Positions 22,922-64,000 of a DNA stretch of 64,000 nucleotides are shown here, one piece after another; position 1 is the stretch's first letter; each line of letters begins with the position of its first letter. Made by a program: the position numbers and the translations under genes. Source of the stretch: Epichloe hybrida. Taxonomy: Eukaryota; Ascomycota; Sordariomycetes; Hypocreales; Clavicipitaceae. A model generated the notes under the pieces. The model worked only from the letters and a program-made list of their open reading frames with translations. It had not been told where the DNA came from and did no database searches. Location of the stretch: assembly GCA_019022495.1 (NCBI GenBank), contig JAFEKR010000002.1, forward strand, positions 2,108,001 through 2,172,000. Direction: 5' to 3'.

Positions 22922-23001
22922 TCACTCGATCTGTTTTTCGCATCCAATACGATTCAATAACTCTTTCCGATCACGGTGACTAGGAAAGCTGACGTTGCTG
23001 A

Positions 23002-23036
<35 letters not shown>

Positions 23037-25403: not shown

Positions 25404-26565
25404 TCATGATGCAGATCCAATACGAACCACCACCTTTTGTCCCCGAATGCGCCCATGCTTCAACATCTCCAGCCCCTCAATGATGCCATCCCACTTGCCT
25501 GGTATTTCACGAGGAGGATGGCACCGGAGCTGCCCATTGTCCAGAAGCGTCTGTATCTCGTGGCGCCAGCGTGTGGCTAGTTCCAAATTGGCTGGATCGG
25601 CCTCGCGGTGATAAACACCACGGATCTCAACTTCTTTGCCCCATAGAGCATAAGCCAACGGCATGTCAACCTTGACTGCCTTGCGAGTTCGCCATTCCGG
25701 AAGAGCATAATCAAGGCCAGCATATCGGGGCCCCGCTCTCGCCAGGGCTCCGAAGCAGCAGCGCACAGAGTCAGGACTAGTGATGCAGTCCATTGCGTTC
25801 TTCAACGAGCCTTTGGTTTCCTCTCGAATTGTGTCTGCGCACGATGGAGATATATAAGGGATGACAGTGGAAGCACCAAAGCTTTTCACGAGAGCCGAGG
25901 AAGTGGTGGAAGCAGTGGCAATGACGTGGTAACCAGACCTGCAAGATGGACGTTGTTAGAGTTGAAGGTGGTGTTCAAGTAACAGTGTGATCTAGGAACA
26001 GAGCCACTCACTTGCTCAGAATCTGGCATGCCATTGTGCCCGTGGCCGTGGCGCCACCATATACAAGCACTGGTATACGACTCCCGTCTGCCCTCAGTTG
26101 AGCAGGTGCTGATGGACGCCCTGCGAGCTTCAGACAATCCTCCATAGCAAGCGCAACCGTTGCCCATCCGACGCCACCCAGCGCTGCGGCTTCGACGTCG
26201 CTCCACGTAGCAGGCACTCGCAACAGTACGCGAGAATCTGCTATGAGATACTCCGCGAAAGCGCCATTATCTGGGTTCGCGGGGTTGCATCCATGCACTG
26301 GGCCACAGAGGCGCGTACCAGGGGGGCATTCGTCGGCCAAAGGCCCAGCCTCAACGACGGTGCCTACGAAATCGCACCCCAGTATCGCGCCAGGAGTAGG
26401 ATGATAAGCTGGCATGCGGTAATCTGTTGGGTTCAAGGCCACTGCTAAAACTCGTATCAAGACATCGAAGGGCTCAGTCACCACTGGCATCGGGTGTGTC
26501 GTGGAAATGACGGGTCGATTGCCCTCATCATGAGGTTGGACAAGGCAGGTCTGCATTTGCACCAT
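25404..26565 (-). CDS. Trans-acting enoyl reductase (LovC type)
   Basis: Two exons, 26565-26012 and 25938-25404, with a 73-bp GTGAGT-to-GCAG intron, give 362 residues, the usual length of LovC-family reductases. These medium-chain dehydrogenase/reductase proteins work in trans with highly reducing polyketide synthases whose own ER domain is inactive, using NADPH to reduce the enoyl intermediate. Seen: the GroES-like N-terminus (VLIRVLAVALNPTDYRM, GAILGCDFVGTVVEAG), the cofactor loop VYGGATATGTMACQILSK at about 168-185, and AMDCITSPDSVRCCFGALAR, a typical LovC-family block. Zinc-binding Cys residues of ordinary alcohol dehydrogenases are absent, as expected. Start: ATG at 26565 (MVQMQTCLVQ) matches family length; an ATG at 26631 would add 22 residues. 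It is intact while its neighbours are broken, and its likely partner is the PKS at 63,502. Confidence 0.9.
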
Positions 26566-26972
26566 TTTCCGAGTGAGTACTTGTAAGATACTTTTCGTAG
26601 TGAGAGTAGTTGAGGCTTCGGTGAACTCCATTCTAAACAAGCTTCCTTGACAATAGTAAAGCAACTGTCAATCTTTTTTGTTGCCAGTTCGTCGAGAAAC
26701 CTTCGGCTATCAAATCATCATTTTCGCCAGCCAAAGTGCTTCGTCGGGGTAAAAGTCGCCGAGTCGGGATCGGATGCTGACCAGGTTCGGAGGCTTGGGG
26801 CCCGCTACTGAGTTCTCTATCCATAAACTGTCCGATTGGCTCGGCAGCTGCGAACATGGGTTTCACTCACGAAATGTAGTTCTTCCAGAATCATACCGGG
26901 AAAAGTCAAGCAGAACGTCTCTGCAGGCTATATGGGAGAAGTACAGTTTCGGGATAGCATTCACCGCTGCAC
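26566..26972. other. Divergent promoter region
   Basis: Between the reductase (minus) and the second P450 relic (plus). Short frames have no family signal. Confidence 0.5.
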
Positions 26973-29457
26973 ATGGGGTACGTCTCTATTTGGCATCATT
27001 CTTCATGCTACGGCAGTTGGTCCTGGACCAAGTTGACCGTATCAGCTGTACTAGCGACGTGTATATTTGATCTTGGCTCAAAGGTCTATCGTGACTTTCG
27101 CCTTCGGCGCATTGGCTCTTCGGCTAAGCCCATCCCATTTATGGCACCACTCGGTCAGTCTTGCTCAGCTTGCATCGTTGCAGCAACAAGTCATGGCCAT
27201 AGTTGAGTACCATTCTAACATGCGGTGCGCAAATATCAGGTCTTGACGTGGGGATTTACTCCCTGTATCGGTTCTTCACCAACACCTACTTTGACTTGGT
27301 TTCCGCATGGCTTGACGCGTCGCCTGGTCGAACCGTAGAAATGCGCATGTTTTCTCAGGGGCTAATCCTCACTGACGAGCCGGCCAACATCAAGGCCATC
27401 ATGTCCACCGAGGTCAGTTATACAACAGTCTTGCCCTCGAATTTGCCATGGGCTACAGGTGGCTGACTTGATAAATAATACAGTGGTCTAGTTTTGGGAA
27501 AGGAGAGGTAACACGACGCATTTGGGTCAACATGATTGGTCAAAGGAAAATTTTCGCAAGTAAGAGAGCACAGAATAGATCAAGCATCAACCAGAAGGGA
27601 ACGAAGAGGAGTGGAGGCAGCATAGGAATACTGAAGCGCGTATTAGTCGACGGGGAACACTGGCAAAAAGCAAAGGCATTACTTCGTCCACATGTAAGCG
27701 CAAAGGAGATCCTTCCCTCTGTGCAATCTTTCTAACGGGGGACTCGGATTGGCCACGCTCGGTCAGATGATCTTTTAAGAACTGAGCGCCATGTCAGGAG
27801 GCTATTTGATCGATTTAACACTGAACAGCCACTTGAAGGCTACGATTGGATTGATAGGTTCCAACTTGATGTGACGACGGACATTTTCTTTGGGGAGTCG
27901 GCGGATTCCATCATATCTGAGCCGCCGTTTCGACCTGCGATGGACGTGCTTCTTCCCATAAATACGGCTCGCATGCTTTTCGGGTAGGCACCGAGATCAG
28001 ACTGGTGTAGTACACTGCGACTGACCACGGCTATGTCAGATCGAGGGCCTTCTATATGCCTGACACCCTGTTGGCGCCGAAAGCTTTGCAAGTTTTGAAA
28101 TAATATACCGACTCGCTGACTGACCGAGCCTACGAAAGAGATTTGTCGAAGAAGAAGCCCCAAGAGTATAACATGCTAGGCGACCTAGTCAGCTAGAGGA
28201 AAAGCTATCATGTATAAGGCACACGCCAGTTGTTGGTACTTGGGCCGTGAGAACGTCGTATGATCAGATGCTCACAAGCTGCAGGACATCAAAGAAGCTC
28301 TCATGTCTGTCATGCTGGGTGGCAAGGTCAGTTGTAGTAACTTGGCTGTACACGAGTTGATGTGGGCTAATTTCGACCCGGCATGCAGGATCCATCTTCC
28401 AATTTTGATTACCTGGGCCATTTTCCTGATGGGAAAGCATCCACAAGTCATGAAGAAAGTGCAGGCAGAAGTAGCCAAGGTGTAGGTTAAAGTCCAACCA
28501 ACAACTGGTGCCAGCCAAGAAGTATTGACACCAGCGCCAATATCAGGTCTGGGACAAAACCGCCAACAGCATCCGAATTGAAAGAGATGACCTACCTTAG
28601 ACACGTCATCAACGAGACTTTTCGCCTACACCACCCATGTTAGTATTTGATTTTCTTCCTGACGTGGCAAGCGAATAAAAGCTTTTGCAGTACTATGCAG
28701 TAAGCTGACGCGTGCGAACGGCGTGGCATAGTGGGCATGAACATACGAGTCGCCCTGAACGACGTGACATTGCCAACGGGGGGTGGCAAAAGCGGAAAAG
28801 AAGCACTGGCTATCGCCAAGGGGCCCAGTATCAGTAAGCAAAGCTCCCAGCGTACACTTTCAATCTCTCATGCAAGCCAATTTTCGTCAGGTCCGAGGGC
28901 CGGAACAGAGCCACTGACAGGTGTACTTGGCACCAAAAGTCTACTCTTTGATGGGAATGCAACGCCGGCAGGACTTTTTGGCGAAGACGCTAGCGAGTTC
29001 AGGCCGGAACGGTGGGAAGAGAAGAGTGTTCATCGTTGGCATTTTGTGCCGTATAACCAGTGAGTCAGAGTCTGATGGGATGTCCCAGACATTGGCCTCC
29101 GCTCCTCATCATCCTCCTCCCGTCCCCTCACACCCCCCCTTCTTCCTCAATCACTTCCCCAGCCCGCTCCTCCCTCTGCTTCCTCTTTTCCCCTAAATTA
29201 TCTGCGTATCCCTCCTTTCCTCCTTCTTTAAGAAGCTCCATATACGGCCTTGGTAGTGACATGAAATCGTTAAGCGGCCCGCGGATGTGCATGGGCAGAA
29301 ACTTTGGTCACAGCAAATGGAGTACGTTCTGGCCAGGATATGCCAGGAGTTCGAGGAGATACGGGTTCCGGGAGGCCAACATGAACAGCAAGTCAAAATC
29401 GAGCTCAACTGCAAGATGACGCATCCTTGTATGTGCGAATTTATGAAGAGGCAGTAG
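26973..29457 (+). pseudogene. Cytochrome P450 pseudogene (CYP52-like)
   Basis: Order of recognisable pieces: anchor and SKVYRDFRLRRIGSSAKPIP; GLDVGIYSLYRFFTNTYFDL; DEPANIKAIMSTE; EWSSFGKGE; DGEHWQKAKALLRPH; DWIDRFQLDVTTDIFFGES; DIKEALMSVMLGGK; LITWAIFLMGKHPQVMKKV; EMTYLRHVINETFRLHHP with the ExxR motif; FRPERWEEK; and the heme loop GPRMCMGRNFGH. This matches CYP52/CYP539-type fatty-acid or alkane hydroxylases. Lesions: an in-frame TAA at 28101-28103, another stop near 28194, loss of frame near 27736, one extra T in the I-helix segment near 28405, and a shift between the heme Cys loop and MEYVLARICQEFEEI near 29316. Several genuine introns are still visible (for example GTCAGT at about 27154 to CAG at 27239). 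Base composition is normal, so decay was not RIP. Confidence 0.8.
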
Positions 29458-30646
29458 GTGAAGCTGTTAGGGTATTTACGCTAGTAGGAGATACCATATT
29501 CTTGGTAAAATCCTAAAAATATCTCTGTTGGAACAAGCATGATATCAATCGCGCTTCGCAGCCGCAAATGTCCGGCAAAAGATCGGCTTGCGCGAACCCC
29601 ACACGTGACCCACACGTGACCCACACGCGACCCGTTTTCCTTCTCTTCGAATGCCTTCGCTTTTGACCACTCTTTCCCTCCTTTTCTTCTGTAGCTTAGA
29701 ATAGATGATTAACAACGATACTATTCTTCGGGCTCACAATGTTACGGCCATAATATCAGGAATCCTGTGATACCAACAATCTCCTTATGTAGTTGTGATA
29801 TGGCTTGTGGAGTCACATCAGCTAAGGTCTGCATCCAATTGGAAAAAAGTGCATTAGAAGTACATGAATTTATATATGAATTGATCCTATAATCATTGTA
29901 ATTATCATACTAGTAATTTTCCTGCACTTGACAATTTTCTTACATAGATAAGCGGTAACTGACCTTGTGTCAGGAGCGCAGAGGTCGGAGACAGGACGCT
30001 TATGATAGTGGAGCTCCGGAGGCACTTCGGACCGTTCAAATGATAAAGAGGCTAGCTAGCTACGAGCCTACGAGATAGCCTCGTGTTCGCGGGGCGGAAT
30101 AAGGCACTTCGCATGTACCTCACTTGATGCCACACTAGGCCACGGAAAGACCTGTCATTGGCCTGCTGCCCCTAGTTCTGTACCCCCTGTAAGGACAAAC
30201 AGTGATTACATATGTGTACTCCGAATGTACTGTAAAGGTGGCAGCCAAAGCCGGGCGTCCAGCTGCGAATTCACGGGACCGCCGTGTTCATATTATTTGT
30301 CAGCAGCTCGCCACCTAATCCCCTCTCTCCCCCTGCCAACGGGAGGGAACTGGACGCTGAAGAATATCTACACGCCCCCTTCAACCAAGACAAAATGGGC
30401 GTTTCTGCGCCTGCCAAGATACCCCAAGCCGCGTGAGATTTTTCAAATTGCACTTCCTCCAACGACTCGCAACATGTTAGAATTGTATGATTTGACAGCT
30501 TATATTGCATGTAAAGTACCAGTTACATAGGTACAGATTGTGGGCAGTACGAGCCCTAATGTACACTCCACCGCGCAATCTAGCGGAAGTGGTCCTGATT
30601 GGCTGTGAAATCCAACAACACACACCATCACAACCCTATGTAATAG
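29458..30646. other. Left flank of the transposon island
   Basis: No gene is supported. It includes a CCACACGTGACC tandem (about 29599-29631). GC falls gradually toward the island but does not reach island levels. The last five bases, 30642-30646, are the AATAG target duplication. Confidence 0.6.
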
Positions 30647-30877
30647 TGTCAAGGTAAGGGTGTAAATGGATGATAAAAAGCGTTCAATTTCGGTTAATTA
30701 GAGGTGTAAATAGCACCTAACTTTTGTACCTAAAAGGTACATAGTGCGCTATAGTAATAACTAGTTTATAAAGGTACTTCTAATATATTATATTTACTAA
30801 TATCTAACCTTATATTTATCCCTATTAGTGTATGCTACCCTTATATAACCTATGCTTTAAGGGAGCTCTCCCTAATA
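30647..30877 (-). repeat. Left LTR of the outer Copia element
   Basis: 231 bp aligned end to end with 58785-59016. Differences are almost all C-to-T or G-to-A changes, for example CTCGCG on the right against CTTATA here. The 3' end CTAATA corresponds to CTGACA after RIP. Confidence 0.88.
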
Positions 30878-31082
30878 CACCCCCCTTAGCTAAGATATTT
30901 ATTAAAGCTAAAGATTATAGGCATAGGAAGAGATTATAATAATTTTCTAGTGTTATAATTAAGTAGGAATTTCCTATAAGCTAATTCTATAATAAAATTC
31001 CTTATATATTTACCTTAATAAAGGCTTTATAAAGCTATTAGTAAGTATCTTAAAGGTCTTTAACTAATTTACCTTAATATTA

Positions 31083-31284
31083 TGTGAGGCCCCACTCACA
31101 ACAACACCCGTAACCACTAGTGCACCCCGCGGGCAGGCCATATCCTAGGGCTAGGTTCACATAACACTAGCAAGCCACTAGCTATAAGCTAGTAACTTAC
31201 ATATATAACACACTTAGACCTAGTAAGCTTTAGTTAATATACTAAAGCCCTTATATCTCTTACCTAGCTACTATTATTCTTATA
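31083..31284 (+). repeat. 5' LTR of the Gypsy element
   Basis: 202 bp, begins TGTGAGGCC and ends TTCTTATA (TTCTCACA before mutation). Preceded by TATTA. Confidence 0.88.
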
Positions 31285-34200
31285 ATTCTAAAGCTTCTCT
31301 TACTAGCTACCTAAGAGTAATATAAGGGGGAGAATTACTTAATTTACTAAAGTAATATTAGATAATAACCTAACCCTAATAGATAAGAGTTATACTTAAG
31401 TAAATAAGGGTAATACTATAGGTAAAGATATACTATATACTAATAAAACTATACTTATAATAAGACCCTTTACCCCTTATAGTAAAGCTATAGTAATACT
31501 AGAGTAAATTACTTAGCTAGAAAAACTCTAAAGATTATAAGAATAAAAATAAGAGCTTATTAACCTTATTAGAGGTAACTTAGGGGAAGTATAAGGGAAA
31601 AGTAAGTAAAGAGCTAGCCTCTCCTTAAGTAATAGTAGCTAAGAGATTAAAGTTAAGAATATTACTAAGCTTTAATACCCTATAAACCCCTAGAGGCATA
31701 AGATATAAATAAATAACCTAAACTATACCTTTAATAAGGCAAAGAAAAAATACTAATGTAATTACTAAAAGATTCTCTTTACACTTAACTATATACACAC
31801 TAATTATAGGGTAAGATAGAATAAATACCTTAATAAATAATAGGCTAATAGCTAGGATAATCTTAAGGATAATTAGGATAAATTCTAGACCTAGATACTT
31901 ATACTACTTAGGGACTTTATAAACTATAATACCTAAATAGCTATATAGCTTAAGAATATAAAGTAATATAAGGGCTAGAGCCCTATTAAATTTAGTATCT
32001 TTCTAGATTTACTAGAGATATACCTAGAAAAAGCCCTTAAAAAGTCCTATACCCTTATATTCTTTATAAAGTTACTCCCTAAGCTATAGGACTATATTAA
32101 TTTACATACCTTTATTACTAGGAAAATATAAGAGAAGGTTATATAACTTACCTAGTGATTTTAGGAGGCTATACTAAAGAGTAAGTAAAAGCCTAAATAT
32201 TTAGGAGATAAGGGATTATATAAGAATCCCTAATATTATAGAAATAACTTACCCTAAGGTTATAAGCTATATAAAGATTAAAGGAATAAAGACTAAGAAA
32301 AGGGCCTAACTATATACCTAAATAATAGTAAAGTTAGGGATAAGAGGTAATATTATAACTATAATAGCCTAAACTACCTTATAAAAAAATATAATAAGCT
32401 AAGGAAAAACCCCTAAGATAAATAAGGAAACTTCCTAAGGTAAAAGTAAAGGCCTTTACCTTTACCTTAAATACTAAGGTACTAATTAGGTATTGATTTT
32501 ATATACTAGTTACTATTTATAAGTATAAAGACATTAAAATAGCGGTAAATCTAGATAGCTACGCTAAGCTTAATATTATTAGTATTAAATTTATAAGAAA
32601 CTATAAGCTTAATTAGGCTAAGGCTATAGTACTTATCCTCTAGGTAGTAAGGGCCCTTATAGTCCCTTAATATAGTATTTATAAGGTACCTATTACTATT
32701 AAAGACTTAAGAGAGAAAGAAAAGGACTTTAAGCTACTATATATAGCTATAGATAAAGACCTAAGAGTAAGGGGAAGCCTTATCTTAATTAGGATATATA
32801 TACTTACTAAAGGATATATATATCTTTATTTATACTCTTAAGAGTAATAGTTTAAGAAAAAGAAAATAGCCTTTTTACTTATAACTCCTTATAAGTTTAT
32901 AAAGGTAATATATAATAAGGCTATTATATATACTATTATAGGAGTTATAAAAGATAAGTTTATTACCCTTAAAGATAATAAGGAGGTAAAAGTATATAGA
33001 ACTATTAAAGATATCCCTAAGGAACTATATAAGTTTAAAGATATATTTATAGTAAATAAAGTAAGTAATTTACTATTAAGAAAGAAAACTAATTATATAA
33101 TTAACTTAATACCTAAGGCTACGCCCCTATATAAACTAATTTACTCTCTCTCCTAAAGTAAGTTAAAGGAGCTTTATAAATATATTAATAAAAACCTATA
33201 GAAAGGCTAGATAAGACCCTCTAAGAGCCCTATAAGCATACCTATCCTATTTATACTAAAGAAAAATAAAATACTTTAACTATATATAAATTATTAGGGA
33301 CTTAATAAAGTAATATAGAAGAATTACTACGCTCTCCCCCTAATTTTATAGATCTTAAACTAGTGCTAAGGAGCTTACTACTTCTTAAAGATTAATATTA
33401 AGGATACTTACTATTAAATTTATATTAAAGAGAGTAATAAGTAAAAGACTATGTTTTATACTTACTATAAATACTATAAATACTTTATAATACCCTTTAG
33501 GCTAACTAACACACTAGTTACTTTCTAGAGCTATATTTATAAAGCGCTTTATAGGCTAGTAAATACTATTTATATAGTGTATCTAGATAATATCCTTATT
33601 TTCTTAAAAATATAAGAGAAGTATACTATATATATTAAGGAAGTTTTAGAATATATAAGGTTAGTAAAGTTATATATAAAACCCTTAAAGTATTTATTTT
33701 ACTAGGAATTAGTGAAATTCCTAGGGTTTATTCTATTAGTTAATAGTATTTTAATAGATATATATAAAGTAAATATAATCTAAGACTAAAAGGAGCCTAT
33801 AAGCTTTAAAGATATATAGTCCTTCCTAGGATTCTATAACTTTAACTAAAGGTTTATTTACTAATACTCTAGGATTATAGTACTCTTATATATACTAATA
33901 AAAGGTAGTTAAAATAGCATCTAGACTAGGAAGTTTATATTTAGGGAAAGAGAATAGCTAGTATTTAACTAGCTAAAAGATACCTTTTAATAATCACCTT
34001 TTCTTTATTATTATAACCTAAGTTAGCTAGTGTGTATTAAGATAAATGCTTTAGTCTTTATAATAGTAAGAATCTTATCTTAGTAAGATAATAAAGGCTA
34101 ATAGTATTCTATAGTATTTTAGTTAAGGAAGTTTATAAATACTAAATATAATTATAGCATAGTGAATTAGAAGCTACTTACTATAGTAAAGTTATTTAAA

Positions 34201-34504
34201 TACTAGTAATACTATATTAAAGGTATAGTAACCCTAGTAAAGGTCTTATTAGATTACTATAACTTATAGACTTTTATAAAGTAATAAAAGCTAAATAGGA
34301 AATAGGCTAAATAGTGTATATTTCTCTACCCCTTTTACTTTATAATTAGGCATAGACTTAGGAAAAGTAACCTAGTAAATACACTATTAAGATAGTCTAA
34401 TTATAAAGGTAAACCCTTAATAAATAAGTTACTTTTACTAAAGCTTTAAAAGAAAATAGTAGTTACTAAAGAATTAGTAAAAGAAAAGATACTAATATAT
34501 AAGA

Positions 34505-34655
34505 GAAGATATAGTAAGATACCTTTAGGGGAGGAAAATACCCTAGTCTTAATATATTAAAGAAAATATAGTAAGATACCTTTAGGGGAGGAAAATACCC
34601 TAGTCTTAGTAAAGAGGCTTAGTAAGATACCTTTAAGGGAGGAAAATACCCTAGC
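34505..34655 (+). repeat. Three-copy tandem repeat inside the Gypsy element
   Basis: Three copies of a unit built on AGTAAGATACCTTTAGGGG and GGAAAATACCCTAG with a period of about 53-56 bp, between the RNase H and integrase regions. Copies are nearly identical apart from one G/A change. Confidence 0.8.
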
Positions 34656-35865
34656 TACTATAGAGAGAGCTCTAGAGGCTAAAGTAGCCTAGTTAAGAGG
34701 CTAGTTAGCCACCGTAAATCTAGTAAAAGATTAGCTAAATAAGGGTAATTTCTAGGAGAAAGTAATATATATTTAAGACATTAGCATAGTATAAGAGATA
34801 TAGGAGACTATTAAGCCACTAAATCCTTACTAATCTAGGCTAAATAAACTATTAGTATAATTACTATAGAAAGCGTAGGATTAAGATCTAGATTTATAAA
34901 GGCAAAATAGTAAGATTAATAATTCCCTAGTAAAAGGTAAGGGAAAAGCTAGTCTATAGTTATATAGTATAAGGGGCCTTCTAATATACTAAGACTAGGT
35001 AGTTATTCCCTAGGAGCTTATCTTATAATAGGAGCTTCTATAGCTACACTATAATAATTTACTAGTAAGTTACTTTAGGACTAAACACACTCTTAAGCTA
35101 TTAAAGTATTACTTCTAGTAGCTAGGTATAAATAAGTTAGTATTTAACTATATTATAAGCTACAGAGTCTACTAGTAAGTAGTAGCTAGAAGGCATTACC
35201 TATATAGAAGCCTTAAATCCTTACTAATACCATAGTAACTATAGGCGGAAATCTTAATAGATTTTATTATAGAATTACTAGTTACCTAAGCAAGTAAATA
35301 AGAGACTAATGCAATCCTAGTAATTATAGACTAATTTACTAAGTACTCTATCTTCTTACTTATAACTATAATAATTAATATAGCTAAACTAGTAAAGCTT
35401 TTCTATAAGGAAATTAAACTAAGGTTTAGGGCACTAAAGGGCATTATATCTAATAGGGGATTAGTCTTTATAAGCTAATTCTAGTTAGACTTATACTACT
35501 TATTATACGTAAAGCAAAGGCTTTTTATAGTGTTTTACCCCTAAACTAATAGGTAAATAAAGAGAATAAACTAAGTACTTAAGCATTACCTCTAATACTT
35601 TATAGCTAATAACTAATAAATATAGCCTAAGTTACTTCTAATAGCCTAATTTACCTATAATAATATAGTAAATAAGACTATAGGCTACTTTCCTAATTAC
35701 TCCCTTATAGGCTATTTACCTAAGTTTTACCTAGCTCTTAAGGATAAGACTAAAGGAGAGAAGGTATTAGAAACTTATATATATATTATAAAGCTATATA
35801 AAGTTAAAGAGTAGCTAAAGTAAAACTAGGTAAAAGCTACTAAGACTTAAGTAAAGTACTATAAC

Positions 35866-37315
35866 CAGAGCTTTGCACTACAATACATTACATTATGTAG
35901 TATTTGTAGTGTAGTGTAGTATACTACACATTACACTACACTACACTACACTACATACTACACTACAAGGAAATTTTTTCACTACACTACACTACATGTA
36001 GTATTTTGTAGTATTTTGTAGTATTTATAGTAAATAGCTTATAATAGCTTATAATAGCTTATAATAGCTTATAATAGCTTATAAATTTATTAGCTATTAG
36101 TATTAATAAGTATTTCCTTTAAGTAAAAATCATATATATAAGTAAAAAAGCTATAAAGAAGTAAGTTATAGTTATAATAACTTACTTATAAACTCACTTT
36201 TATAAAAATCCCTCTCTTTTAAGTAAAAATTATATATTTAAGTAAGAAAGCTATAGAGAAGTTACTTATAGTTATAAAGACTTATTTATAGACTTACTTT
36301 TATAAAAATTCCTTTATTTAAAAATCTTATATTTAAGCAAGAAAGCTATAAAGAAGTTACCTATAGGTATAAGGACCCACTTTTAGACCCACTTTTAAAT
36401 AAATTTCTCTTTTAAAGTAAAAATTATATATTTAAGTAAGAAAGCTATAAAGAAGTTACTAATAGTTATAAGGACCCACTTTTATACCCACTTTTATACC
36501 TATTTTTAGAAAAAACTATATTACTAAGTAAGAAAACTAAAGATAATCTATATTATTTAACTTACTTTTAAAGCTTATTTTTAAATAACTTTAATACTAA
36601 GGAAAATTCATTATATATATTTATTAAATCTAAATTAAATATTTAGTTCTTTTTAAGTAACTTTACTTAGTACTTTTACTATTTCTTTTACTAAAAAAAC
36701 CCTTAAAGTTAATATAATTATTTATAATTCTAATAAGATAGCTATATTACTAGGAACTTCTTTATTAGTTAAATTTTAATATTCTCTTATTAATAAGATA
36801 GTTATATAATATATATAATATTATTAGAGTTTTAGTCTTATTTATATATAATAAAAAATAATTTCTTTAGGGTAATTCCTATATTTTAAGTAAAAAAAGC
36901 ATACTAAAATAAATAGTAAATCTAAAGAAAAAGATATTAAGATAAAGTAACCTCTATAATTAAGGGAAAAAAATAGGTTATAATTATAAACTAAAATATA
37001 CCTTATTTAGCTTCTATATACCTATAATTAGCTTAATAATCTTAATAATATTAAACTTTAAGAATTTATAACTAAATAACTAAATTATAATAAAAAAAAC
37101 AGCTAATATTAAATTAATTAAGAAAAATCTAAGGAATATTATAAAACTATATAATACCCCACTTTTTTTTTTTTACTACACTACATGTAGTATTTGTAGT
37201 GTAGTGTAGTATTTACTACACTACATTACATACTACACTACACTACAATTCACTACACTACATACTACAAGGAAAGTCAAAATACTACATTTACTACACT
37301 ACATGTAAAGCTCTG
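35866..37315. mobile_element. hAT-like non-autonomous element, copy 1
   Basis: 1,450 bp. Ends are inverted: CAGAGCTTTGCACTACA on the left and TGTAAAGCTCTG on the right. Flanked by an 8-bp duplication ACTATAAC at 35858-35865 and 37316-37323, the size typical of hAT elements. Subterminal blocks at both ends are made of CTACA and CTACAC repeats. The core is AT-rich with several GTAAGAAAGCTATAAAGAAGT blocks repeated every 90 or so bases. No transposase is visible. It splits the Gypsy element between integrase and chromodomain. Confidence 0.85.
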
Positions 37316-53564: not shown

Positions 53565-54910
53565 GGTATAATCCCTAAAGACCTCCCTAGAATTAACTAT
53601 ATGTATGGTTAAACCTGTATTATATAATAGGGCCTTTTTTATATCTTTACTATAATAATTAAAACCATTTAAGGAATTAATTTCTTGTTTTTCATTATTA
53701 TCTAAATCACTAGAGCTAGAATTAGAGCTACTATCACTAGAGCTCTTATAACTAGTCTTATAATTACTAGGTTTCTTATATAGATTAAGTGCTCTATTAG
53801 AAAGGTTATAATTTCCTAGTATAAAAGAACCCTCTATAAGTTCTTTAGTATCCTTTTTATTTAATTTTTAACCCTTTTGCTTCTTTTTCTTCTTATTAGA
53901 ATTAGAAGAGCCTTTATTTTCTTTAGAGCCTTCTTTCTTTTTCTTCTAACCTTTAGGGGCCTTTTCCTTATCTTTAGCACCCTTTTCTAGGTCTTTAGCC
54001 CTATAATTCAGGGCTTTAGCTACCGTAAATAACTTATCCCTCTGTTTAGCTAGAAGGTCTGCTATTAGAAATTCAAGATTTAGGGCTTCTAAGGGGACCC
54101 CTATAGCCCTATTTATACGCATACTAAATCATTACCTCTTAGCCTACTAAGGGAAGGTTAATTTTAGGGATTAAAGATATTAATTAACCTAATCTATAGG
54201 ATTAATTAGGACCCCTGAAATTAATAATCTAGCTAGTAAATTATTAAAGACTGCATTAAAGGCTTCTAAAGTCCCCTTAAATCCATGAAAATTCAGGTTA
54301 TGAAATTCAGAATATAGGGACCCTCTCTGGATTTTAACGCTATGTAAAATATTGCCTAATAAATAACTTATAGGCTTCTTTAGGTGATTTTTGCTAAGTT
54401 ATAGTGGCTTAGGGGCCTTCCGTATAACTATCCCTTAGTAACATAAGGATAATAGCTTAGTTAGCATCCCCTAGCACCCTAGAAATATCCGGATTATCTA
54501 GAAAATTAGGCATGCCTAAAGCTCTAAATTAGATAGCTAGGGCTTGTTTCTATTAATTGAAATTTTCAGCTCCTTTAAGCTTAGTAGTCTTAGGGAAGCT
54601 ATAAACCCTCTTATTAAATTCCTTAATAATCAAATTATTAAAGGTAGCTTATACAGAGCTAGATTTAGGCGCCTTATCTTGCTAAATAGGCTATTAAACT
54701 TACTGCTAACTAGTAGGCTTAGTAGCTTCTATACCCTCTATAGGTCTATTATTAATAGCTAAAGTTAAGGACTCTAGCTTCTATATTACTAGATTAATAG
54801 CATTTTATTGTTTAATAACCTTCTCTTTTAGCTAGTTATTTAGAACCTCTTACGCACTAAGATTAGGGACTAGAGGTCCCTGACCTTGTTGATTAGTAGC
54901 TATCTTCTAA

Positions 54911-55184
54911 TTTTATAGAAGGGAAGTCTTCTATTTATACTGAAAATCCTTTTTATAGAAGGGAAAAGCTTCTATCTATACTTAAATTCCTTTTTATAGA
55001 AGGGAAAAGCTTCTATTCACGCTAATTTTCCTTTTTATAGAAGGGAAAAGCTTCTATATTACTTATGCGCTTCCTGTTTTATAGAAGGGAAGTCTTCTGT
55101 AACCATAATAATTTCTTTTTTATAGAAGGGAATAGCTTCTATCTTATAAGTCCTTCCTATTTTATAGAAGGGAAGTCTTCTATA
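54911..55184. repeat. Seven-copy hairpin tandem repeat
   Basis: Seven units, starting about 54911, 54951, 54992, 55034, 55077, 55118 and 55160 (period about 41 bp). Each has the core ATAGAAGGGAAAAGCTTCTAT or ATAGAAGGGAAGTCTTCTAT, whose ATAGAAG and CTTCTAT arms can pair as a hairpin, joined by variable spacers. The arms are kept while spacers differ. Confidence 0.85.
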
Positions 55185-55737
55185 ACTATACATAAAGTGC
55201 ACTAGAAAGAATTTTATAGTAATAGGCTAGGCTTATAACCTATTAAAATGTAAGGAGCTAGTTACTAGCTAGCAATAGCTATATAAGTGTAGCTTTTACG
55301 GTTAGGGACTAATAGAGCCACTACATTAAATATTTAACGTAACGTAATAGAAGGTTTTAGCAGTTATTAACTAATTAAATTTAATCTAGATAAATTTTAT
55401 AATATCTTATATACTAATAAAATTGATTTTAGTGATATTATATAGGCAATACAGCTATTAGATTAAGAGGTCTAGCTATCTAGCTAGGTTAAAAAGATCT
55501 TCTTTCTCTTATATACTTACTAACCATATTAGTAAATCTAGACCGCTAAAGAGGTCTTACAGGCTACTTTTTATTTTCCATAAAATTTATTTATATGTAA
55601 AATCCAAAAAATCAACTCACTACCATATAAACTAGCAACCTATATGCACTAAATTTTAGTCTAAAAAATATTCCTATATAAAATAAAAGCCCTATCTTCT
55701 AGCTTTAATTTACTATATATAAGACTTTTGTATAACC

Positions 55738-56057
55738 TCTAGTTAAAGAGAAAATCGCTGTTAAAAATAGCTATAGGGTAACCTGCTTACGTTACCTTAG
55801 CTTACCTAATTACTAGTAGCGCTGCGGTTATAGCTACGCTTGTAGCTATAACGCAATTGAATAATCCACAATTAATAATTGATTTGGATTAGTCATCCAC
55901 ACGGTCGGTCGCAGCTGTTGACAGCTGCGACGTAGCTATTGACAGCCACCTTCGCGACCGTTAACAGCTGCAGTGCAGCTGTTAGGCTTGCAATGCAAGC
56001 TAGTAATAGAAAGGTCCTTTAACTAGAAAGGGCTAAAAATAGGTCTTATTTTTAACA
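55738..56057 (-). repeat. GC-richer inverted arm, right
   Basis: Inverted copy of 43,317-43,638, ending CTTATTTTTAACA at 56,057. The two arms bound a 12.7-kb segment. No target duplication is seen outside them (left flank TAACTACA, right flank GTATTACT), so they may be two copies of a MITE or a rearrangement product. Confidence 0.85.
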
Positions 56058-56081
56058 GTATTACTAAGATTACTAAGATTA

Positions 56082-56660
56082 TGTCAGAACCTGAAGGTGT
56101 GCAGGTAAGCCATTGAACTAAAAGATTCACCAATGCTAGCTCTCGCTCGCATCGCACCTTACAATTAATTATCAAGCCACGCGTACGCGCGCGCGCACCT
56201 GACAATTATCCCTTCCCTCGTAAGGCTCGCCCTAAGCTAAGGGCCCCACACAGGCTAGCGGCTAGTAACGTAACCTTAGCTTGGATTAGGCCTAGTTATC
56301 CGTGGCCTCTAAGATAATTAACTAATTGTAAACCCCTAAGGCCTAGTACGCACAGCAGCTAGGCCTATACATTACCTAGTGCACGTGACCTTATATAGGT
56401 GTGTGCCCGTACCTGCCCTATGAGCCTAACGTAAGCACCTAGCCTAGCAATTTAAACCTAGACCCGCTAGGTTAATCTAGCTATAGGAATTAAACCTAGG
56501 ACTAGCACACTAGAAAACCCGTGAGAGCTAGCATTAATGTCAGAACCTGAAGGTGTGTAAGTAAGCCATTAAACCAAAAGATTCACCAATGCTAGCTCTC
56601 GCTCGCATCGCACCTTACAATTGATTATCAAGCCACGCGTACGCGCGCGCGTACCTGACA
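56082..56660. mobile_element. TRIM (miniature LTR retrotransposon)
   Basis: 579 bp. Two 123-bp direct repeats (56082-56204 and 56538-56660) each begin TGTCAGAACCTGAAGG and end CTGACA, bounding a 333-bp internal region without coding capacity. Flanked by the 5-bp duplication GATTA (56077-56081, 56661-56665). Composition is near balanced, with CGCGCGCG runs at each LTR end, in the middle of very AT-rich sequence. The LTRs differ at a handful of sites, mostly transitions. Confidence 0.9.
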
Positions 56661-58784
56661 GATTACTAAGATTACTAAGATTACTTATAATATTATTAGT
56701 GTTAAAGTTTAATAAAAAATAAAAAATAAATAAATAACTTAAATATAAATACTAGTAATTATAAGTAAATTACTATAGTAAAAGCTATAGTTTTTAATAA
56801 CTTTATATTTTAAGGTTTTTAAAAATATTAATATTATAAAAATGTTTTTTTTATATTTTTTTAAAATAATAATAAAAGTAAAATAATAGTAATTAAGGTT
56901 ATTAAAGCTTTTATAATAAGTATATATATATTCTTTTTACTAAATAGCTAATTATATAGCTAGTCCTAGTACTTTAACTACCTTTTATAATAAGTATAGT
57001 ATATTATATAAAACTAAGTCCTAGTATTATTTTTAAAAATAAGTTAAACTTATTTTTTATAGCTTAATTAAGCTATATAGGGTAATTAAAATAATACTAT
57101 TAGTTATCTATTAATAAATTATAAATATTAGTTTATTATATTCTTTCTTTATGTATTATTATAATAAGATATATAAAGTTACTATATATAACTTCTTAAA
57201 GCTTTAGAATTATAAAGCTTAAAGTAATATTTAATTAGTTTAAATAGTAAATAAATAGTTTAAGCTTTTTTAAATTTCTTATTATATAACTAATAATATA
57301 TTAATACTAAGTATATACTTTATTAACTTCTTATTATTTATTTAGATTTATTAACTAATTATATTATATTAGTTTAGGGTATTTTTAATTAAAATAATAA
57401 TAATAAATTATAGAAATAGTAAATAATTAGTATTAATAGTAAATAAAAGAATAAGTTAGTTTTTCTTAAAGTTATATTAGTAAAATAAAGTAATAAGTAT
57501 AATAGTATTATTAAAAAGGTATAATATTATAAATAACCCTAGTTATAGTAAAATCCTTAAAAAAAGGTAAATATTATAAATTCTATAACTAATTAAGTAA
57601 AATAGGTAATAATAAAAGCTTCTATATAACTAGCTTTCTTTTAATCCTTATAATAACATTATATAATAAAAAGGCTTACTTTTTTTTTTTACTAACACTA
57701 CATTTGTAGTTTTTGTAGTTAGTGTAGTTAGTAACTACACTAACTACACTATAATATAAGCAAAAAAAAACTACAATACACTACACTATAAAAAAAAAAA
57801 CTACACTACACTAACTACAAAAAAAAAAAACTACACTACAAATACAAATTTTTCCTAAAAACTACACTAACTACACTACAAACAATACTTTGCTAATTAC
57901 CTTAAGAAAGCTATAGTTCTTTCCTTTATTTAGTAAGTTATTTTACTTCTTTTAAAATACCTTAAATTTACTTTAAAGAGAGATAATAAACTTATATAGT
58001 ATTATCTCCTTAGTTTATTAAGTCTTAAGATCTAGATAATTTCTCTATAGTACCTTTATTATTATAGCTTACTTATACTAATTATAAGTACCTTTAGCTT
58101 ATAAGTAATTATTAAGGTAATTCTCTATAAGAATAAGTATTTTCTTAGTATTTAGCTTATATTAATTATAAAGAAGCTTAAGTATTTTATAAGTATAATA
58201 TTAAACTAACTCCTTTTCCTTTACTTTAGTATTAAAGTTAAGAAAGTCTTATATATTCTTTAAAAGGGTTTTATAAATATACTTCTTAATCTTTAGTATT
58301 TACTTTAATAAGTTTATATACTTTATAAGGTTAAATTAAAGCTCTTTATATTTAAAGTTAAATTAGTCCTTTATATCTTTATAAGTAATCTTTTAATCTT
58401 TAAGAGTATTAAGGTTATCTAGTATAATCTCTAGTCTTAAACCCCTTTAAGAGTATATAAGTATTATAGGTTCTTTAAGTAATTTAACCTTATTAGGGTT
58501 AATATACTTTTAAATACTATATAATTCTATATAATTCTTAACTTAGGCAAACCACTTAATCTAATTTTTCTTTAATAATAATACTATATTTAAGGTTTCT
58601 TTAAATATTATAAAGGGGAATATATTAGTTAAGGGAAGCATAGGATATAATATTAACTAATAAATAATATAATAAGGGTGTTTATCTTATAATATTAGTA
58701 AGCGTTAATTAAATTAATTTAATAAAGCTAATAATCTTTAAAGATAGTAATAAAATAGTAATAAAAGCCTCCTAGGCTTATAAC

Positions 58785-59016
58785 TATTAAGGTAAGGGTA
58801 TAAATAAATAATAAAAAGCGTTTAATTTCGGTTAATTAGAGGTATAGATAGCACCTAACTTTTATACCTAAAAGGTATATAGTGCGCTATAGTAATAACT
58901 AGTTTACAGAGGTACTTCTAATATATCATATTCACTAATATCTGACCTCGCGTTTTATCCCTGTTAGTGCGCGCTGCCCTCATATAACCTATGCTTCAAG
59001 GGAGCTCTCCCTGACA
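58785..59016 (-). repeat. Right LTR of the outer Copia element
   Basis: Starts TATTAAGG (TGTCAAGG before mutation) and ends CTCTCCCTGACA, followed at once by AATAG. Its outer half keeps C and G (GTTAGTGCGCGCTGCCCTC) while its inner half is AT-rich, so RIP was lighter at the edge. Confidence 0.88.
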
Positions 59017-59214
59017 AATAGGGACCAATTTGGCCATCAAGGCGATTGACACCAGCTTCTTCATATCTCATGTGCTTATGCGCCTTCATCTCGCCGCGTC
59101 AGCATGGAAACGAGCATGGTCGTCCGAACGCCGGCGCAGATACTTGTCGCCGTGACATAAAAGAGACCACCGGGTCGTCGTGACGAAAATCAACGATTCG
59201 GACAAGCCGCACCC

Positions 59215-60579
59215 ATGACGACCATGAAGCCAAACCAGCCATCCCTCTGTAAGAGGTATGCGTGTGACCGGTGTAGGGAGCAGAAGCTTCGATGCTCTCG
59301 CAGCTCATCGGGAGATAGATCGTGTGAGCGATGTCTCAAATCTAAATCCTCCTGCGTGACCAGCTACGCACGCCCACTTGGCCGACCGCCTCTTCACTCG
59401 AGCATCGATAACGGCAATCAACACCGTCGTCACCAGCACAGCAGATTTAGTGTCCAAGGGAGCAGAGCCGATGATGACAGCACAAGACCCACGTCATCAC
59501 TCAATCAGGTGAAAGAGAAGCAGCATTCTGAAAACTGCTCACATTACGCCTGGCACCAATTCACGACGGCAGATAATCCCCTTCTGTCGCCCTGCAGCTG
59601 TTCGTCATCCATGGCTCATGCTCATGGCCCTGGCCCAGACGCGTCTGGTGCGACGACTCACGCTGCCAGCTTCCAAGGTGCACCCGGCATCATCATTCCT
59701 CAACAACAAGCCATGCCGGATGTCCAACTTGACTCGTCCCACTTCATCAATGGTGGATGGGACACGGGAGGCTTCGATGACATTGGCGCAGCAGACTTTG
59801 AGCTCCAGCTCGAAAGCAGCCCCTGCTGGATGCAGGACCTGCCGTTCGACCATGTTGCACATGCGTCGCCGACGGTGGAGCACGTCACCCATGACGAATC
59901 TACTGCTGCCGACACAGACGACGATACTCCGCCATCAAGAGGCTCATGTGCGGCAAGCTCCGCGCTCATGACAGTCGGAAACAGCTTCCACGAAATCGCG
60001 AATCTAAATCACCAACGCTTGGATTCCGCGAATCTGTGTGACACAAAGCTGCTTCATGAAGCCTTGTTCGGGATGCAGCCCCCGAGGAGTCCTCATGACG
60101 GCCAAGAGGGCTGCATGCCCCTGAGACGTGTCTTCGATGTGACCGTGAGATTTGTGTGGGCCCTCCAGACCATGAATCCCGTTGCTTGTGGAACAGGACT
60201 GGCTCGACCCTCGCCGCCCGCTCTGTCCGTCCAACTCATGGTTCTCTCAACATACCTTGAACTAGGGCAGTTGCTGGACAGATTCCTGACACGTATGCAT
60301 GATGACCATGCTTCTCATAGGCGGCTAGCGAATTGCGGACAGCGGGCCTCTCGACATGGCACGATGCTAGCGCAGGTTATTGAGCACCAAATGCACTCCA
60401 TTGAGCGTTTGATAGGGCTACCGGAGGAGTTCAGGCTCTGGAGCCGGCAAGACTCTTACGTGGGAATCTTGGACCAGGATCGACCCTCTGAACTCGCGCT
60501 TGCCGTCATGGGGCAGGCAAAGGGGACGTTTACATCGCTGAAACAGACCATGGACAGAATCACCACGGCTCCGGAGTGA
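59215..60579 (+). CDS. Zn2Cys6 transcription factor, AflR-like
   Basis: A single exon of 454 residues. The binuclear zinc cluster is C17-x2-C20-x6-C27-x9-C37-x2-C40-x6-C47 (CDRCREQKLRC, then CERCLKSKSSC), followed by the linker RPLGRPPL, a pattern shared with aflatoxin regulator AflR and other cluster-specific regulators. A long Ser/His-rich middle lacks the large fungal_trans domain; the C-terminal 190 residues (HEALFGMQPP, FDVTVRFVWALQ, LELGQLLDRFL, QMHSIERLIGLP) form a helical region of the AflR type. Such proteins bind promoters of the adjacent metabolite cluster, so the P450 and PKS to the right are its likely targets. The start is only 194 bp from the transposon island, so its promoter was probably truncated or replaced by the insertion. 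Confidence 0.85.
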   Translation: MTTMKPNQPSLCKRYACDRCREQKLRCSRSSSGDRSCERCLKSKSSCVTSYARPLGRPPLHSSIDNGNQHRRHQHSRFSVQGSRADDDSTRPTSSLNQVKEKQHSENCSHYAWHQFTTADNPLLSPCSCSSSMAHAHGPGPDASGATTHAASFQGAPGIIIPQQQAMPDVQLDSSHFINGGWDTGGFDDIGAADFELQLESSPCWMQDLPFDHVAHASPTVEHVTHDESTAADTDDDTPPSRGSCAASSALMTVGNSFHEIANLNHQRLDSANLCDTKLLHEALFGMQPPRSPHDGQEGCMPLRRVFDVTVRFVWALQTMNPVACGTGLARPSPPALSVQLMVLSTYLELGQLLDRFLTRMHDDHASHRRLANCGQRASRHGTMLAQVIEHQMHSIERLIGLPEEFRLWSRQDSYVGILDQDRPSELALAVMGQAKGTFTSLKQTMDRITTAPE

Positions 60580-60877: not shown

Positions 60878-62957
60878 TCAGGTCTTGGCCGTATAAGGCG
60901 TGAGACGAACTCTGACAGGCGGCTTTTGCCACACCATGTAGACACGCAAGTCCCTGTCCCAGTCGACTTCGTCCCCATTCGCCAGGCGCCAATCAAACCG
61001 CCAACACAGCCTTGCAATCATGACTCGAAGCACAGTGTACGCCACGGCTTGGCCGATACAGTTTCGAGACCCGATGCTAAATGGACGAAATGCGCTTTGA
61101 GCGTCCGCATCATACATTCGATCGTAGTCTGCGTGGGCGGCGGGAAGCCATCTTTGAGGCTTGAATCCGTATGGGTGCCGGAAGTATCGCGCGGAATGCG
61201 TCGTGGCGTAAGCGCAGGTGGAAACTACACACTAAGTGAAGACGATTTAGTTGCCAAGTATTCAATGTGCAGCGAGAATTGAAAAAAGCACCGGAAGAGA
61301 CAAGGAGACAACAAAACTTTACCCCCTTTGGCACAAAATGACCATCGATCATGTGTCCCGGGCTGATGCGAGGCAGCCCGTACGGGACATTTGTATGGAG
61401 CCGAAGCGTCTCCTCGATAACGGCATGGAGCCATGGAAGTTCACGGAGCGAATCATCCGTCATCTCGTCCAGGGAGTGAAACTTCTCGCGCAGCTCTCCT
61501 TGCAATTTGCTCATGGGGCCCTCGTTGGTGGTGAGAAAGTAGATTGCAGCGGAAAGCACACTGGAGGATTCGAAATGGTCGAAAATGAGATGAACGGCCT
61601 GCGAGACGAGAAACTCCTTTGGGGGCAAGAGACCGCCCTCGTGGACGAACTGAGCCAGGTAATCAAGCTCCTTTGCATCATCTCGGCCCTTGACTCGCTC
61701 TTCAACGAGTTTGCTGCTCAATCTATGGGCCCTGACATAGCTGAGCGCGACGTTGGGGGGTAGCAGGAGATAGGAGAGCCAAGAGATGAGAGGGAATCGT
61801 CGAAAGACCATCCGAATCGTAGTCCACTGGCCTACACCAAGAATCGACGCAAGGATCGGGTTGTTTCTCCCTATTTTTTGTTTTTGCCAATTCCGGATTA
61901 GCGGATGAGTCTATCTGGATATGAATAAAAAAATGAAAGTTCTTTCTCGTCAAACGCACCATCCCGGACATTGTGAAAGTCATGATTCACGGCAATAGCT
62001 CCACCGATGTCGGTCGTGACTCGCTCGAACCACTACGTCGTCACCACTCAGATCACAAACACACATCGAAGACGCCAGGTATAGGGATAGGGGTATGTTA
62101 TACGTACGGGGACGATATTGAATCCATCGCGGGTTTCCGACATGTCCTCCAGTTTTTCAAGCAGTAGATCAGTGTGACGATGTATCTTCGGTTGATATGC
62201 CTTCAAAGAGCGAGGACTGAATGCCGGGGCCAGTTGCTTGCGTGCAGCGCGGTGCTGCTCGACATCACGCTCAGATGCCAGGCCTTCATACTTTTCACCC
62301 AAATCCAGCATATCCGACTTGACAAATGCAGGGCGACCTTGAATGGTGCTGGTATAGATGTCTGAGAAACGATGGGAAGTCAGCATGGACACGCATTTGT
62401 CGAGCGCAGTGCGGTCGCTCAGCAGGCGGAGTCCAGCTTACCAGTATATGCCTCTGGCGTGAAGAACACCACCTCATTCGGCGCAATTCGCACTACATCT
62501 CCTATTCCTGCTCGTCAGCCAACTCAAGGCATCATGGGCGGTGAGTCGTGCGAACCGTGTTCGTGAAAAGCGCGCTGGATAGCCCAGGGATAGCGGCCAG
62601 ACAGCCTGGAAAACACTCAAGACCCGTCCGTCAGTCACTGCTTTCGAGTCATGTTCTGGGAAAGAGGGCAGGCAGCTTGTATCTTACCAATGATATCCAT
62701 ACCACAGGTTGGATATGGCGGCGAGTTTTGGGCCAGGGAAACGGGCCAGCGGGTGAAACCGAAGCAAGTAGATGGCTCGTGAGAATGCATATATGATTAT
62801 CTTTCTGCGTATTTAGCCACATCATATACATAACCTGTGCCTCATTAAACAGCCTGATTCTTACACTGGTTAGAAGAACGACTACATATTGCTGGAGGGA
62901 CAACCTGTTGCTCAAAGTCGTCATCTCCAGGGCCAAATTTCTCAGTTGGGCTTCCAT
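60878..62957 (-). CDS. Cytochrome P450 (CYP65-like, cluster type)
   Basis: Eight exons on the minus strand: 62957-62867, 62775-62688, 62605-62556, 62507-62442, 62361-62108, 62032-61958, 61910-61323 and 61231-60878, giving 521 residues. Order: membrane anchor ([17 protein letters not shown]), [52 protein letters not shown] (C-helix), [13 protein letters not shown] with the ExxR motif, [11 protein letters not shown], and the heme loop [13 protein letters not shown]. Resembles isotrichodermin C-15 hydroxylase-type P450s that oxidise polyketide or terpene products. All junctions keep frame with GT-AG introns except exon 6 to 7: the obvious GTGCGT donor gives the wrong phase, while a GC-AG intron (61957-61911) restores [14 protein letters not shown] one-base deletion there is the alternative. 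It is divergent from the PKS, sharing a 544-bp promoter. Confidence 0.8.
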
Positions 62958-63501
62958 GTTGGGGGTTTCGATTTGCCGGGCCACGAACGCGGATCAGAAC
63001 AACAGTTCTAGTTGCGGATATGAATTTTGATGGAATTAGAGGACATGTTATTATCGAGACTGGAACGACTTCGTTTTCGGATACATTCTGCTCCCCCACA
63101 ATCTGTTTGATACCCCGATGCACTGTCATCCTATCGGAGGGCTCAAAATGCTCCGAATCAATTCACGCCGACCCCGGAGCGTAAGCTCTGCGGAGCTGAG
63201 GCGACTCGGTCGGAACTGAGCCGGGAATCATGCTCAATCGTGATTGTTTCCACTTGCTATATTCTAGTCCTCGGAACCTTTCGAACATTTTTGAGATTCC
63301 GTGAACTTCAGTTCGAAGAGTCAACGGCAACCATCACCAGACAGAGATTTTCCAGCCAATACCCTCTGTGATTTCGCATCAATTGCCGAAAATACCACAT
63401 ATTCGCGGTTGTCACGGTCACTCAGACCCACCAAAGTCAAATCAAGTTTATCGTACTGTGCTTGAGCGCATTTGCCTCTGTCTAGGTCATACTTGCGTGT
63501 C
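62958..63501. promoter_or_regulatory. Bidirectional P450/PKS promoter
   Basis: A 544-bp region between divergent starts, the usual layout for co-regulated cluster genes. It contains CGGAGG at 63,136 and a cluster of TCGGAAC and GGCGACTCGGTCGGAACTGA-type half-sites at about 63,190-63,220 (two TCGG direct repeats), plausible binding sites for the Zn2Cys6 regulator. The site assignment is inference. Confidence 0.5.
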
Positions 63502-64000
63502 ATGGAGACGGGGGAAATGCCTCCATCACAACGAGGCAATGAGCCCATTGCCATTATTGGTAGTGGCTGCCGACTTCCGGGTGGCTCCAACTCCCCTTCG
63601 GCACTCTGGAAGCTCCTGAGTGAACCTCGTGATGTTCTCTGCCAGATCCCGCCCAGTCGATTCGATGTGCGTGGATTTTATCACGAGGATCCCCAGTTTC
63701 CTGGCCATACCAATGTGAAGCACTCTTATCTTTTGCAAGAGAATATCGCACGCTTCGATGCTGCTTTCTTCAACATCACGCCGACAGAAGCCATGGCCAT
63801 GGACCCTCAACAGCGGCTGCTGCTGGAAACGGTATATGAGGCCATGGAGGCGGCAGGCTTGACCATACAAGGCTTGAAAGGCTCCGATACGGGAGTTTAT
63901 GTCGGCCAGATGTATGGTGACTATGAGGCCCTTCAAAACCGAGATCTTCACCGTGTTCCCACGTATCACGGGCTAGGTGAGTGGTTTTTTTGTTGGTCGA
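63502..64000 (+). CDS. Highly reducing polyketide synthase, 5' end (LovB type)
   Basis: The first exon, 63502-63976, encodes the start of the ketosynthase domain; a GTGAGT donor at 63977 begins an intron that runs off the window. Seen: EPIAIIGSGCRLPGG near the N-terminus, WKLLSEPRDVL, IPPSRFDVRGFY, HSYLLQENIARFDAAFFNI, the hallmark MDPQQRLLLETVYEAMEAAG, GVYVGQMYGDY, and PTYHGLG, where the family continues with the active-site exon. This pattern is that of LovB-like highly reducing type I PKSs and PKS-NRPS hybrids, many of which lack a working ER domain and need a trans reductase. The LovC-like gene at 25,404-26,565 is the natural partner. Everything downstream of the first 158 residues lies outside the window, so domain make-up is unknown. 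Confidence 0.9.
   Translation, partial: METGEMPPSQRGNEPIAIIGSGCRLPGGSNSPSALWKLLSEPRDVLCQIPPSRFDVRGFYHEDPQFPGHTNVKHSYLLQENIARFDAAFFNITPTEAMAMDPQQRLLLETVYEAMEAAGLTIQGLKGSDTGVYVGQMYGDYEALQNRDLHRVPTYHGLGEWFFCWS

What the first reader, a model, noticed from the sequence alone, without database searches (positions are those of the whole stretch)
25404..64000. Polyketide cluster apparently split by a 28.4-kb transposon nest
A LovC-type trans enoyl reductase (25,404-26,565) has no PKS beside it, while a LovB-type PKS begins at 63,502 with its P450 and AflR-like regulator. LovC-type reductases are normally encoded next to the PKS they serve. The only thing between them is the island bounded by one exact 5-bp target duplication, so before that insertion the two halves were about 9 kb apart. 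That both enzymes stay intact while neighbours decay suggests they are still needed together.
Basis: partly seen in the sequence, partly recalled or inferred. Interest (0 to 1): 0.82.

Follow-up and report, generated by a model that had tools for sequence, protein, structure and literature searches.

The report
Fungal metabolite cluster split by transposons
A fungal gene cluster for an unknown polyketide-peptide compound has been cut in two by a 28-kb block of dead transposons, and a sister copy in the same genome, which lost nearly all of the main enzyme gene, shows that the two separated pieces once sat together; the pattern is already known from this fungal family, and here the main enzyme gene is probably broken too.

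Summary
The split is real. The synthase is not LovB-like: read past the window end it is a PKS-NRPS hybrid (KS-AT-DH-MT-KR-ACP-C-A-T-R) with no ER domain detected. Two tests tie the halves together. (1) A collinear second copy of the locus (contig C74) lacks the island; there, sequence beside the reductase is fused to a stub of the synthase R domain, so the ancestor carried reductase and synthase in one locus. (2) For 10 of the 25 nearest reductase relatives, a relative of this synthase has the same species and contig length, with neighbouring locus tags in one. "Both intact" is wrong: the synthase has a frame change near 68.97 kb, unless that is a base-call error. The C74 reductase, without a synthase, has lost its start codon and 5' splice site; the window's copy is clean. 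This fits dependence on the synthase, with the window's system dying recently. Clusters broken by RIP-mutated repeat blocks are known from epichloid fungi: a new member of a known kind.

The parts
25404..26565 (-). trans-acting enoyl reductase (LovC type), 362 aa, one intron (26,011-25,939), open
26870..29450 (+). decayed gene beside the ER, probably a P450 (in-frame stops near 28,101 and 28,194); approximate limits
   Evidence: frames; weak support for P450: PF00067 on 1 of 6 pieces at 17.1 bits, below the 22.8 cut-off, 2 of 120 P450 proteins hit at E 1e-4 to 6e-4 against 0 of 120 in two control stretches; lesions
30642..30646 (.). target-site duplication AATAG, left copy
30647..30890 (+). 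left LTR (aligned core 30,651-30,873; right limit approximate)
30647..59016 (.). RIP-like AT-rich transposon nest, GC 0.26, with further internal repeat pairs (such as 35,921-37,322/52,062-53,571 and 47,766-48,817/56,673-57,759)
58787..59016 (+). right LTR (aligned core 58,789-59,012); at least 40 copies in the genome (334 candidates, 40 scored)
59017..59021 (.). target-site duplication AATAG, right copy
59215..60579 (+). Zn2Cys6 regulator; first ATG about 193 bp from the island border; only match in the genome search
60881..62993 (-). cytochrome P450 (P450b), several exons; frames look open but no close orthologue was aligned; other P450 matches in the genome are at most 36% identical
63502..64000 (+). 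start of the PKS-NRPS gene (exon 1 63,502-63,976, intron to 64,038). It continues past the window to about 75,960 in window coordinates (C69:2,171,502-2,183,960), frame change near 68,967-68,987

Best explanation
This is one biosynthetic cluster for a polyketide-amino acid hybrid: a PKS-NRPS without a detectable enoyl reductase domain and the trans-acting reductase that would serve it, with a Zn2Cys6 regulator and P450s. On this chromosome copy an LTR retrotransposon inserted between the reductase side and the regulator/P450/synthase group, gathered further insertions and was mutated by RIP (shown: anatomy; inferred: order of events). On the sister copy (C74) a deletion removed the regulator, one P450 and nearly all of the synthase, leaving two fused stubs (shown for the synthase; for regulator and P450b inferred from their absence there). 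The orphan reductase there has since decayed (shown: lost start codon and 5' splice site; inferred: because its partner is gone). The window's reductase and synthase were kept under constraint until recently, since the synthase deviates little at invariant positions and keeps its motifs; a frame change has now probably ended the pathway (shown in the assembly; a base-call error is not excluded).
For: C74 is collinear with the window from 3,051 to 28,513 and then jumps directly to window-coordinate 74,815, inside the synthase R domain; the two breakpoints seem to share about 3 and 6 bp. Genome search with the synthase A-T-R part: one full copy on C69, one fragment on C74 (90%, one stop); the other 45 of 47 matches are 27-35% identical. 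Regulator: C69 only. P450b: the other 13 matches are at most 36%. The ER has two copies plus one 29% match. ER and PKS distance matrices over 15 pairs (14 same-contig pairs plus the window) correlate at r 0.86, 0 of 5000 permutations as high. No ER-domain hit in the synthase pieces, nor in the Pfam lists of the nearest relatives P0121-P0123. ER on C74: 24 derived changes against 5 on C69, 7 unresolved; 10 against 0 at near-invariant columns. ER omega 0.51 against 0.07-0.24 in seven pieces of EMC1, PigN, P450c, FAH and MAAI. The window synthase deviates at 12 of 555 and 16 of 508 invariant columns, within the spread of 13 orthologues.
Against: The excess of changes on C74 is not specific to the ER: P450c, present on both copies, shows 14 against 5 (16 unresolved), Fisher p 0.49 against the ER. 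Two ORF pieces of the neighbouring TLC-domain gene have omega 0.46 and 0.64 (they may run over introns). 16 of the 29 fungal PKS-NRPS relatives P0121-P0149 have no ER partner in the 120 ER hits listed, including the third-best, Lecanicillium saksenae. That the decayed gene beside the ER is a P450 rests on weak matches. No empty site for the island was found, because the C74 deletion covers it. The frame change argues against present function.
Confidence: 0.86

Rival explanations
1. The cluster is still active: the frame change is a base-call error, and reductase and synthase work together across the island although their starts are 37 kb apart.
For: The ten synthase motifs looked for are present and private deviations are low. 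The window's ER has 0 deviations at 96 invariant columns. The frame change is the only lesion seen in the synthase.
Against: The site is not in a homopolymer. The probable P450 beside the ER is a pseudogene. The regulator starts about 193 bp from a RIP-like block, where silencing might be expected (inference).
Confidence: 0.2
2. Reductase and synthase belong to different pathways and lie near each other by chance.
For: They are separated by the island, and 16 of 29 synthase relatives have no listed ER partner.
Against: The C74 fusion of the ER side with the synthase stub, same-contig pairs and neighbouring tags, matching distance matrices.
Confidence: 0.03
3. The C74 arrangement is ancestral and C69 gained the synthase together with the island, for example by horizontal transfer.
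For: The sister copy has no island and no full synthase.
Against: C74 keeps a 3' piece of the synthase fused in the collinear orientation to a truncated remnant from the ER side, which a gain on C69 does not explain.
Confidence: 0.03
4. The island itself switched the pathway off, and all decay followed from that.
For: The island lies just upstream of the regulator and is RIP-like.
Against: The sister copy lost the pathway by deletion, and no match of 150 bp or more to the island is seen in its 80 kb fetched. The order of island, stops and frame change on C69 is not known.
Confidence: 0.2

Closest known systems
Epichloid alkaloid loci (EAS, IDT/LTM, LOL) broken up by AT-rich, RIP-mutated repeat blocks (PMC3585121, passages seen)
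   Same: Clavicipitaceae (this genome by nearest hits); a metabolite cluster separated by a long nested, AT-rich, RIP-like transposon block; partial losses; that paper also mentions repeat blocks disrupting a polyketide synthase gene next to LTM
   Different: Here a PKS-NRPS with trans-ER; the same abstract says that such blocks were not characteristic of most other specialised-metabolism loci. One island with a clear outer LTR pair and target duplication, and a second copy of the locus in the same genome for comparison
PKS-NRPS hybrids with trans-acting ER (tenellin, leporin, cytochalasin and others; PMC7421883, passages seen)
   Same: Hybrid domain order, no ER-domain hit, LovC-type reductase gene in the ancestral locus, P450s nearby
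   Different: No hit listed carried the name of a characterised product of this pair; reductase displaced from the synthase; synthase interrupted
LovB/LovC of lovastatin (PDB 3b6z)
   Same: The reductase is LovC-like over 350 residues
   Different: The synthase has a full C-A-T-R extension, so it is a PKS-NRPS and not a LovB-type PKS (LovB's layout recalled)

Membership tests
LovC-type trans-acting enoyl reductase | sequence relationship to LovC over full length | tested here: met
   3b6z E 7.1e-58 over residues 9-358
LovC-type trans-acting enoyl reductase | gene linked to a PKS or PKS-NRPS | tested here: met
   ancestrally linked, from the C74 junction; 10 of 25 relatives with the same species and contig length as a synthase relative
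LovC-type trans-acting enoyl reductase | reduces the synthase-bound chain in trans | not testable with these tools
   needs enzyme assay or gene removal
PKS-NRPS hybrid with trans-ER | KS-AT-DH-MT-KR-ACP-C-A-T-R domain order | tested here: met
   Pfam hits on open pieces (the ACP hit is below its cut-off), motifs
PKS-NRPS hybrid with trans-ER | no active ER domain | tested here: met
   no ER-domain Pfam hit between MT and KR in the pieces, nor in the Pfam lists of the nearest relatives P0121-P0123; the frame change lies in this stretch
PKS-NRPS hybrid with trans-ER | continuous reading frame | tested here: not met
   frame change near 68,967-68,987; base-call error not excluded
LovB-type HR-PKS | ends after a C domain without A-T-R | tested here: not met
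   AMP-binding, PP-binding and NAD_binding_4 follow; that LovB ends after its C domain is recalled, not from a call
RIP-mutated LTR retrotransposon island | LTR pair with TG...CA ends and target duplication | tested here: met
   outer ends are TG and CA, inner ends are mutated
RIP-mutated LTR retrotransposon island | RIP index | tested here: met
   TpA/ApT 1.73, (CpA+TpG)/(ApC+GpT) 0.33

The most novel reading that the evidence does not exclude
A trans-ER/PKS-NRPS pair that keeps working together across a 28-kb RIP-mutated, presumably heterochromatic island, while the partnerless reductase of the sister locus copy in the same genome decays: a natural test that selection on a trans-ER depends on its synthase and survives physical splitting of the cluster.
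Probability: 0.15. Interest if true: 0.65.

Novelty: new member of a known kind. Interest (0 to 1): 0.4.

Why it matters
The two copies of one locus in one genome give separate endings of the same cluster: deletion on one side, island plus small lesions on the other. They let one ask whether a trans-acting reductase outlives its synthase; here the partnerless one has decayed. The case also warns annotation: a cluster caller with a usual distance limit could list an orphan reductase and a synthase without one.

Tried and rejected
LovB-type PKS: rejected, the gene is a PKS-NRPS. An intron at the frame change: rejected, P0121, P0122 and P0123 align through the site without missing residues. P450c (76,143-77,746 in window coordinates) as a cluster member: not supported; its nearest named relatives are in Metarhizium, and no hit named Metarhizium is among the 120 PKS-NRPS hits listed, so it looks like a flanking gene. 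Rate asymmetry of C74 against C69 as ER-specific proof: rejected by the P450c control. Dating the island from LTR divergence: not attempted, since RIP makes it unreliable. The repeat finder on the island was swamped by a 10-bp tandem array and was replaced by self-BLAST. Paper searches: none of the listed titles and abstract openings describes this cluster; one search found nothing, possibly because an accented genus name cannot be searched. An empty site for the island in a relative: no fungal genome collection was on hand. The species was not identified; nearest named relatives are Claviceps, Cordyceps and Metarhizium, and many genome matches come in pairs, which suggests two subgenomes.

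Full report
What is there. The window is C69:2,108,001-2,172,000 of a 79.9-Mb assembly in 156 contigs. The reductase runs on the minus strand from 26,565 to 25,404, with one intron and 362 residues. LovC is its best solved relative, and its nearest sequences are from Claviceps africana (73%), Cordyceps javanica (72%) and Claviceps maximensis (69%). Beside it, read the other way, lies a decayed gene with two in-frame stops. It is probably a P450, on weak evidence: one of six pieces hits PF00067 below the cut-off, and 2 of 120 P450 proteins match it, against none in two control stretches; P450b is matched by 120 of 120. Then come the island, the regulator, a second P450 and the synthase.

The synthase. 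I fetched C69 for 28 kb past the window end and later 10 kb more. Open pieces carry KS, AT, DH, MT, KR, C, AMP-binding, PP-binding and NAD_binding_4 domains, and an ACP match below its cut-off, so it is a PKS-NRPS of about 4,000 residues with four introns. No ER-domain family was hit. Against P0121, P0122 and P0123 the match moves from one frame to another near 68,967-68,987 without missing residues. The first frame closes at a stop at 69,255. The pieces otherwise look constrained: 12 of 555 and 16 of 508 invariant columns deviate, while the 13 orthologues range from 1 to 46 and from 0 to 63 deviations. All ten motifs that I looked for are present (motifs recalled). So either the break is recent or it is a base-call error.

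The island. The outer LTRs align at 88% over 224 bp; with outer ends TG and CA and AATAG on both sides, they mark one element of 28,370 bp. Inside are other repeat pairs that are not all neatly nested and a 3.6-kb array of a 10-bp unit. Indices are strongly RIP-like, whereas the decayed gene next to it (TpA/ApT 0.71) and the regulator-to-synthase stretch (0.47) are not. The LTR family has many copies: 40 scored of 334 candidates. The first ATG of the regulator lies about 193 bp from the border.

The sister copy. The reductase has a second copy on C74. I fetched C74:440,001-520,000 and compared it with C69. Where they align they are collinear at 78-96% identity. The match stops at window position 28,513, inside the decayed gene, and resumes at 74,815, inside the synthase R domain, with no other DNA between. 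The junction seems to share about 3 bp, and a second small deletion about 6 bp. Two truncated remnants fused in collinear orientation are the mark of a deletion, and show that the ancestor had the reductase side and the synthase in this order. Genome-wide, the synthase has one full copy plus this fragment, which holds a stop; the regulator has one match; P450b itself plus 13 other matches of at most 36% identity.

Other fungi. The search output gives the length of each protein's contig. Of the 25 best ER hits (P0001-P0025), 10 share species and contig length with a PKS-NRPS hit: P0003, P0004, P0012, P0018, P0019, P0020, P0021, P0022, P0024, P0025. P0002 and P0005 share the species only; 13 have no partner in the list. 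The contigs of C. maximensis (66 kb) and Aspergillus thermomutatus (26 kb) are short, and Penicillium atrosanguineum has neighbouring tags. From the other side, 11 of the 29 PKS-NRPS hits P0121-P0149 have a same-contig partner, 2 the same species only, 16 none. Both lists show only the best 120 hits. Same species and length is taken as same contig; this is an inference. Over 15 pairs the distances correlate at r 0.86; shared species history may contribute to this.

Did the reductase need the synthase? On C74 the reductase has lost its start codon and its 5' splice site, and has 24 derived changes against 5 on C69 (7 unresolved; sign test p 0.0005), 10 against 0 at columns kept in at least 11 of 12 orthologues. 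On C69 it deviates at 0 of 96 invariant columns; C74 at 7 of 97, where orthologues range from 0 to 7 in the same set. Omega for the pair is 0.51, against 0.07-0.24 for seven pieces of five other genes. Against this: the flanking P450c also has 14 derived changes on C74 against 5 on C69, 16 unresolved, so the rate bias alone is not specific, and two pieces of the TLC-domain gene have omega 0.46 and 0.64. The lost start codon and splice site and the changes at near-invariant columns (10:0, against 2:1 in P450c with 2 unresolved) carry the point. The synthase fragment on C74 is also decaying: 7 derived changes against 3, 7 unresolved, with gaps.

Known or new. [quoted passage not shown] Passages of PMC6921081 describe AT-rich, retrotransposon-rich regions in the JTM locus. 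Passages of PMC7421883 list trans-ER as a key enzyme of many PKS-NRPS cluster groups. So the kind is known; this locus was not seen in the listings. What is added is the comparison of two fates of one cluster within one genome.

Noticed in passing
window 44168-47785: 3.6-kb tandem array of a 10-bp unit (about 362 copies, 76% matches) inside the island.
   Followed up: no
window 51774-52106 and 43223-43316: 17-bp minisatellites with 97-98% matches, unusually uniform within RIP-like surroundings.
   Followed up: no
C69:2184143-2185746 (window coordinates 76143-77746): P450c next to the synthase is 99% identical over 372 residues to P0241 (source 'lgn', 7 contigs, no name) on the C69 side but 90% on the C74 side, so a close relative of the C69 parent seems to be in public data.
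   Followed up: partly
whole genome G000: Several synthase matches come in near-identical pairs on different contigs, and C69 and C74 are collinear; the assembly looks like a hybrid or diploid of two clavicipitaceous genomes.
   Followed up: partly
window 22922-24646: TLC-domain gene next to the ER (Pfam hit on the 22,922-23,599 piece only) differs more between the two locus copies than other neighbours (omega 0.46-0.64 on ORF pieces that may include introns).
   Followed up: no
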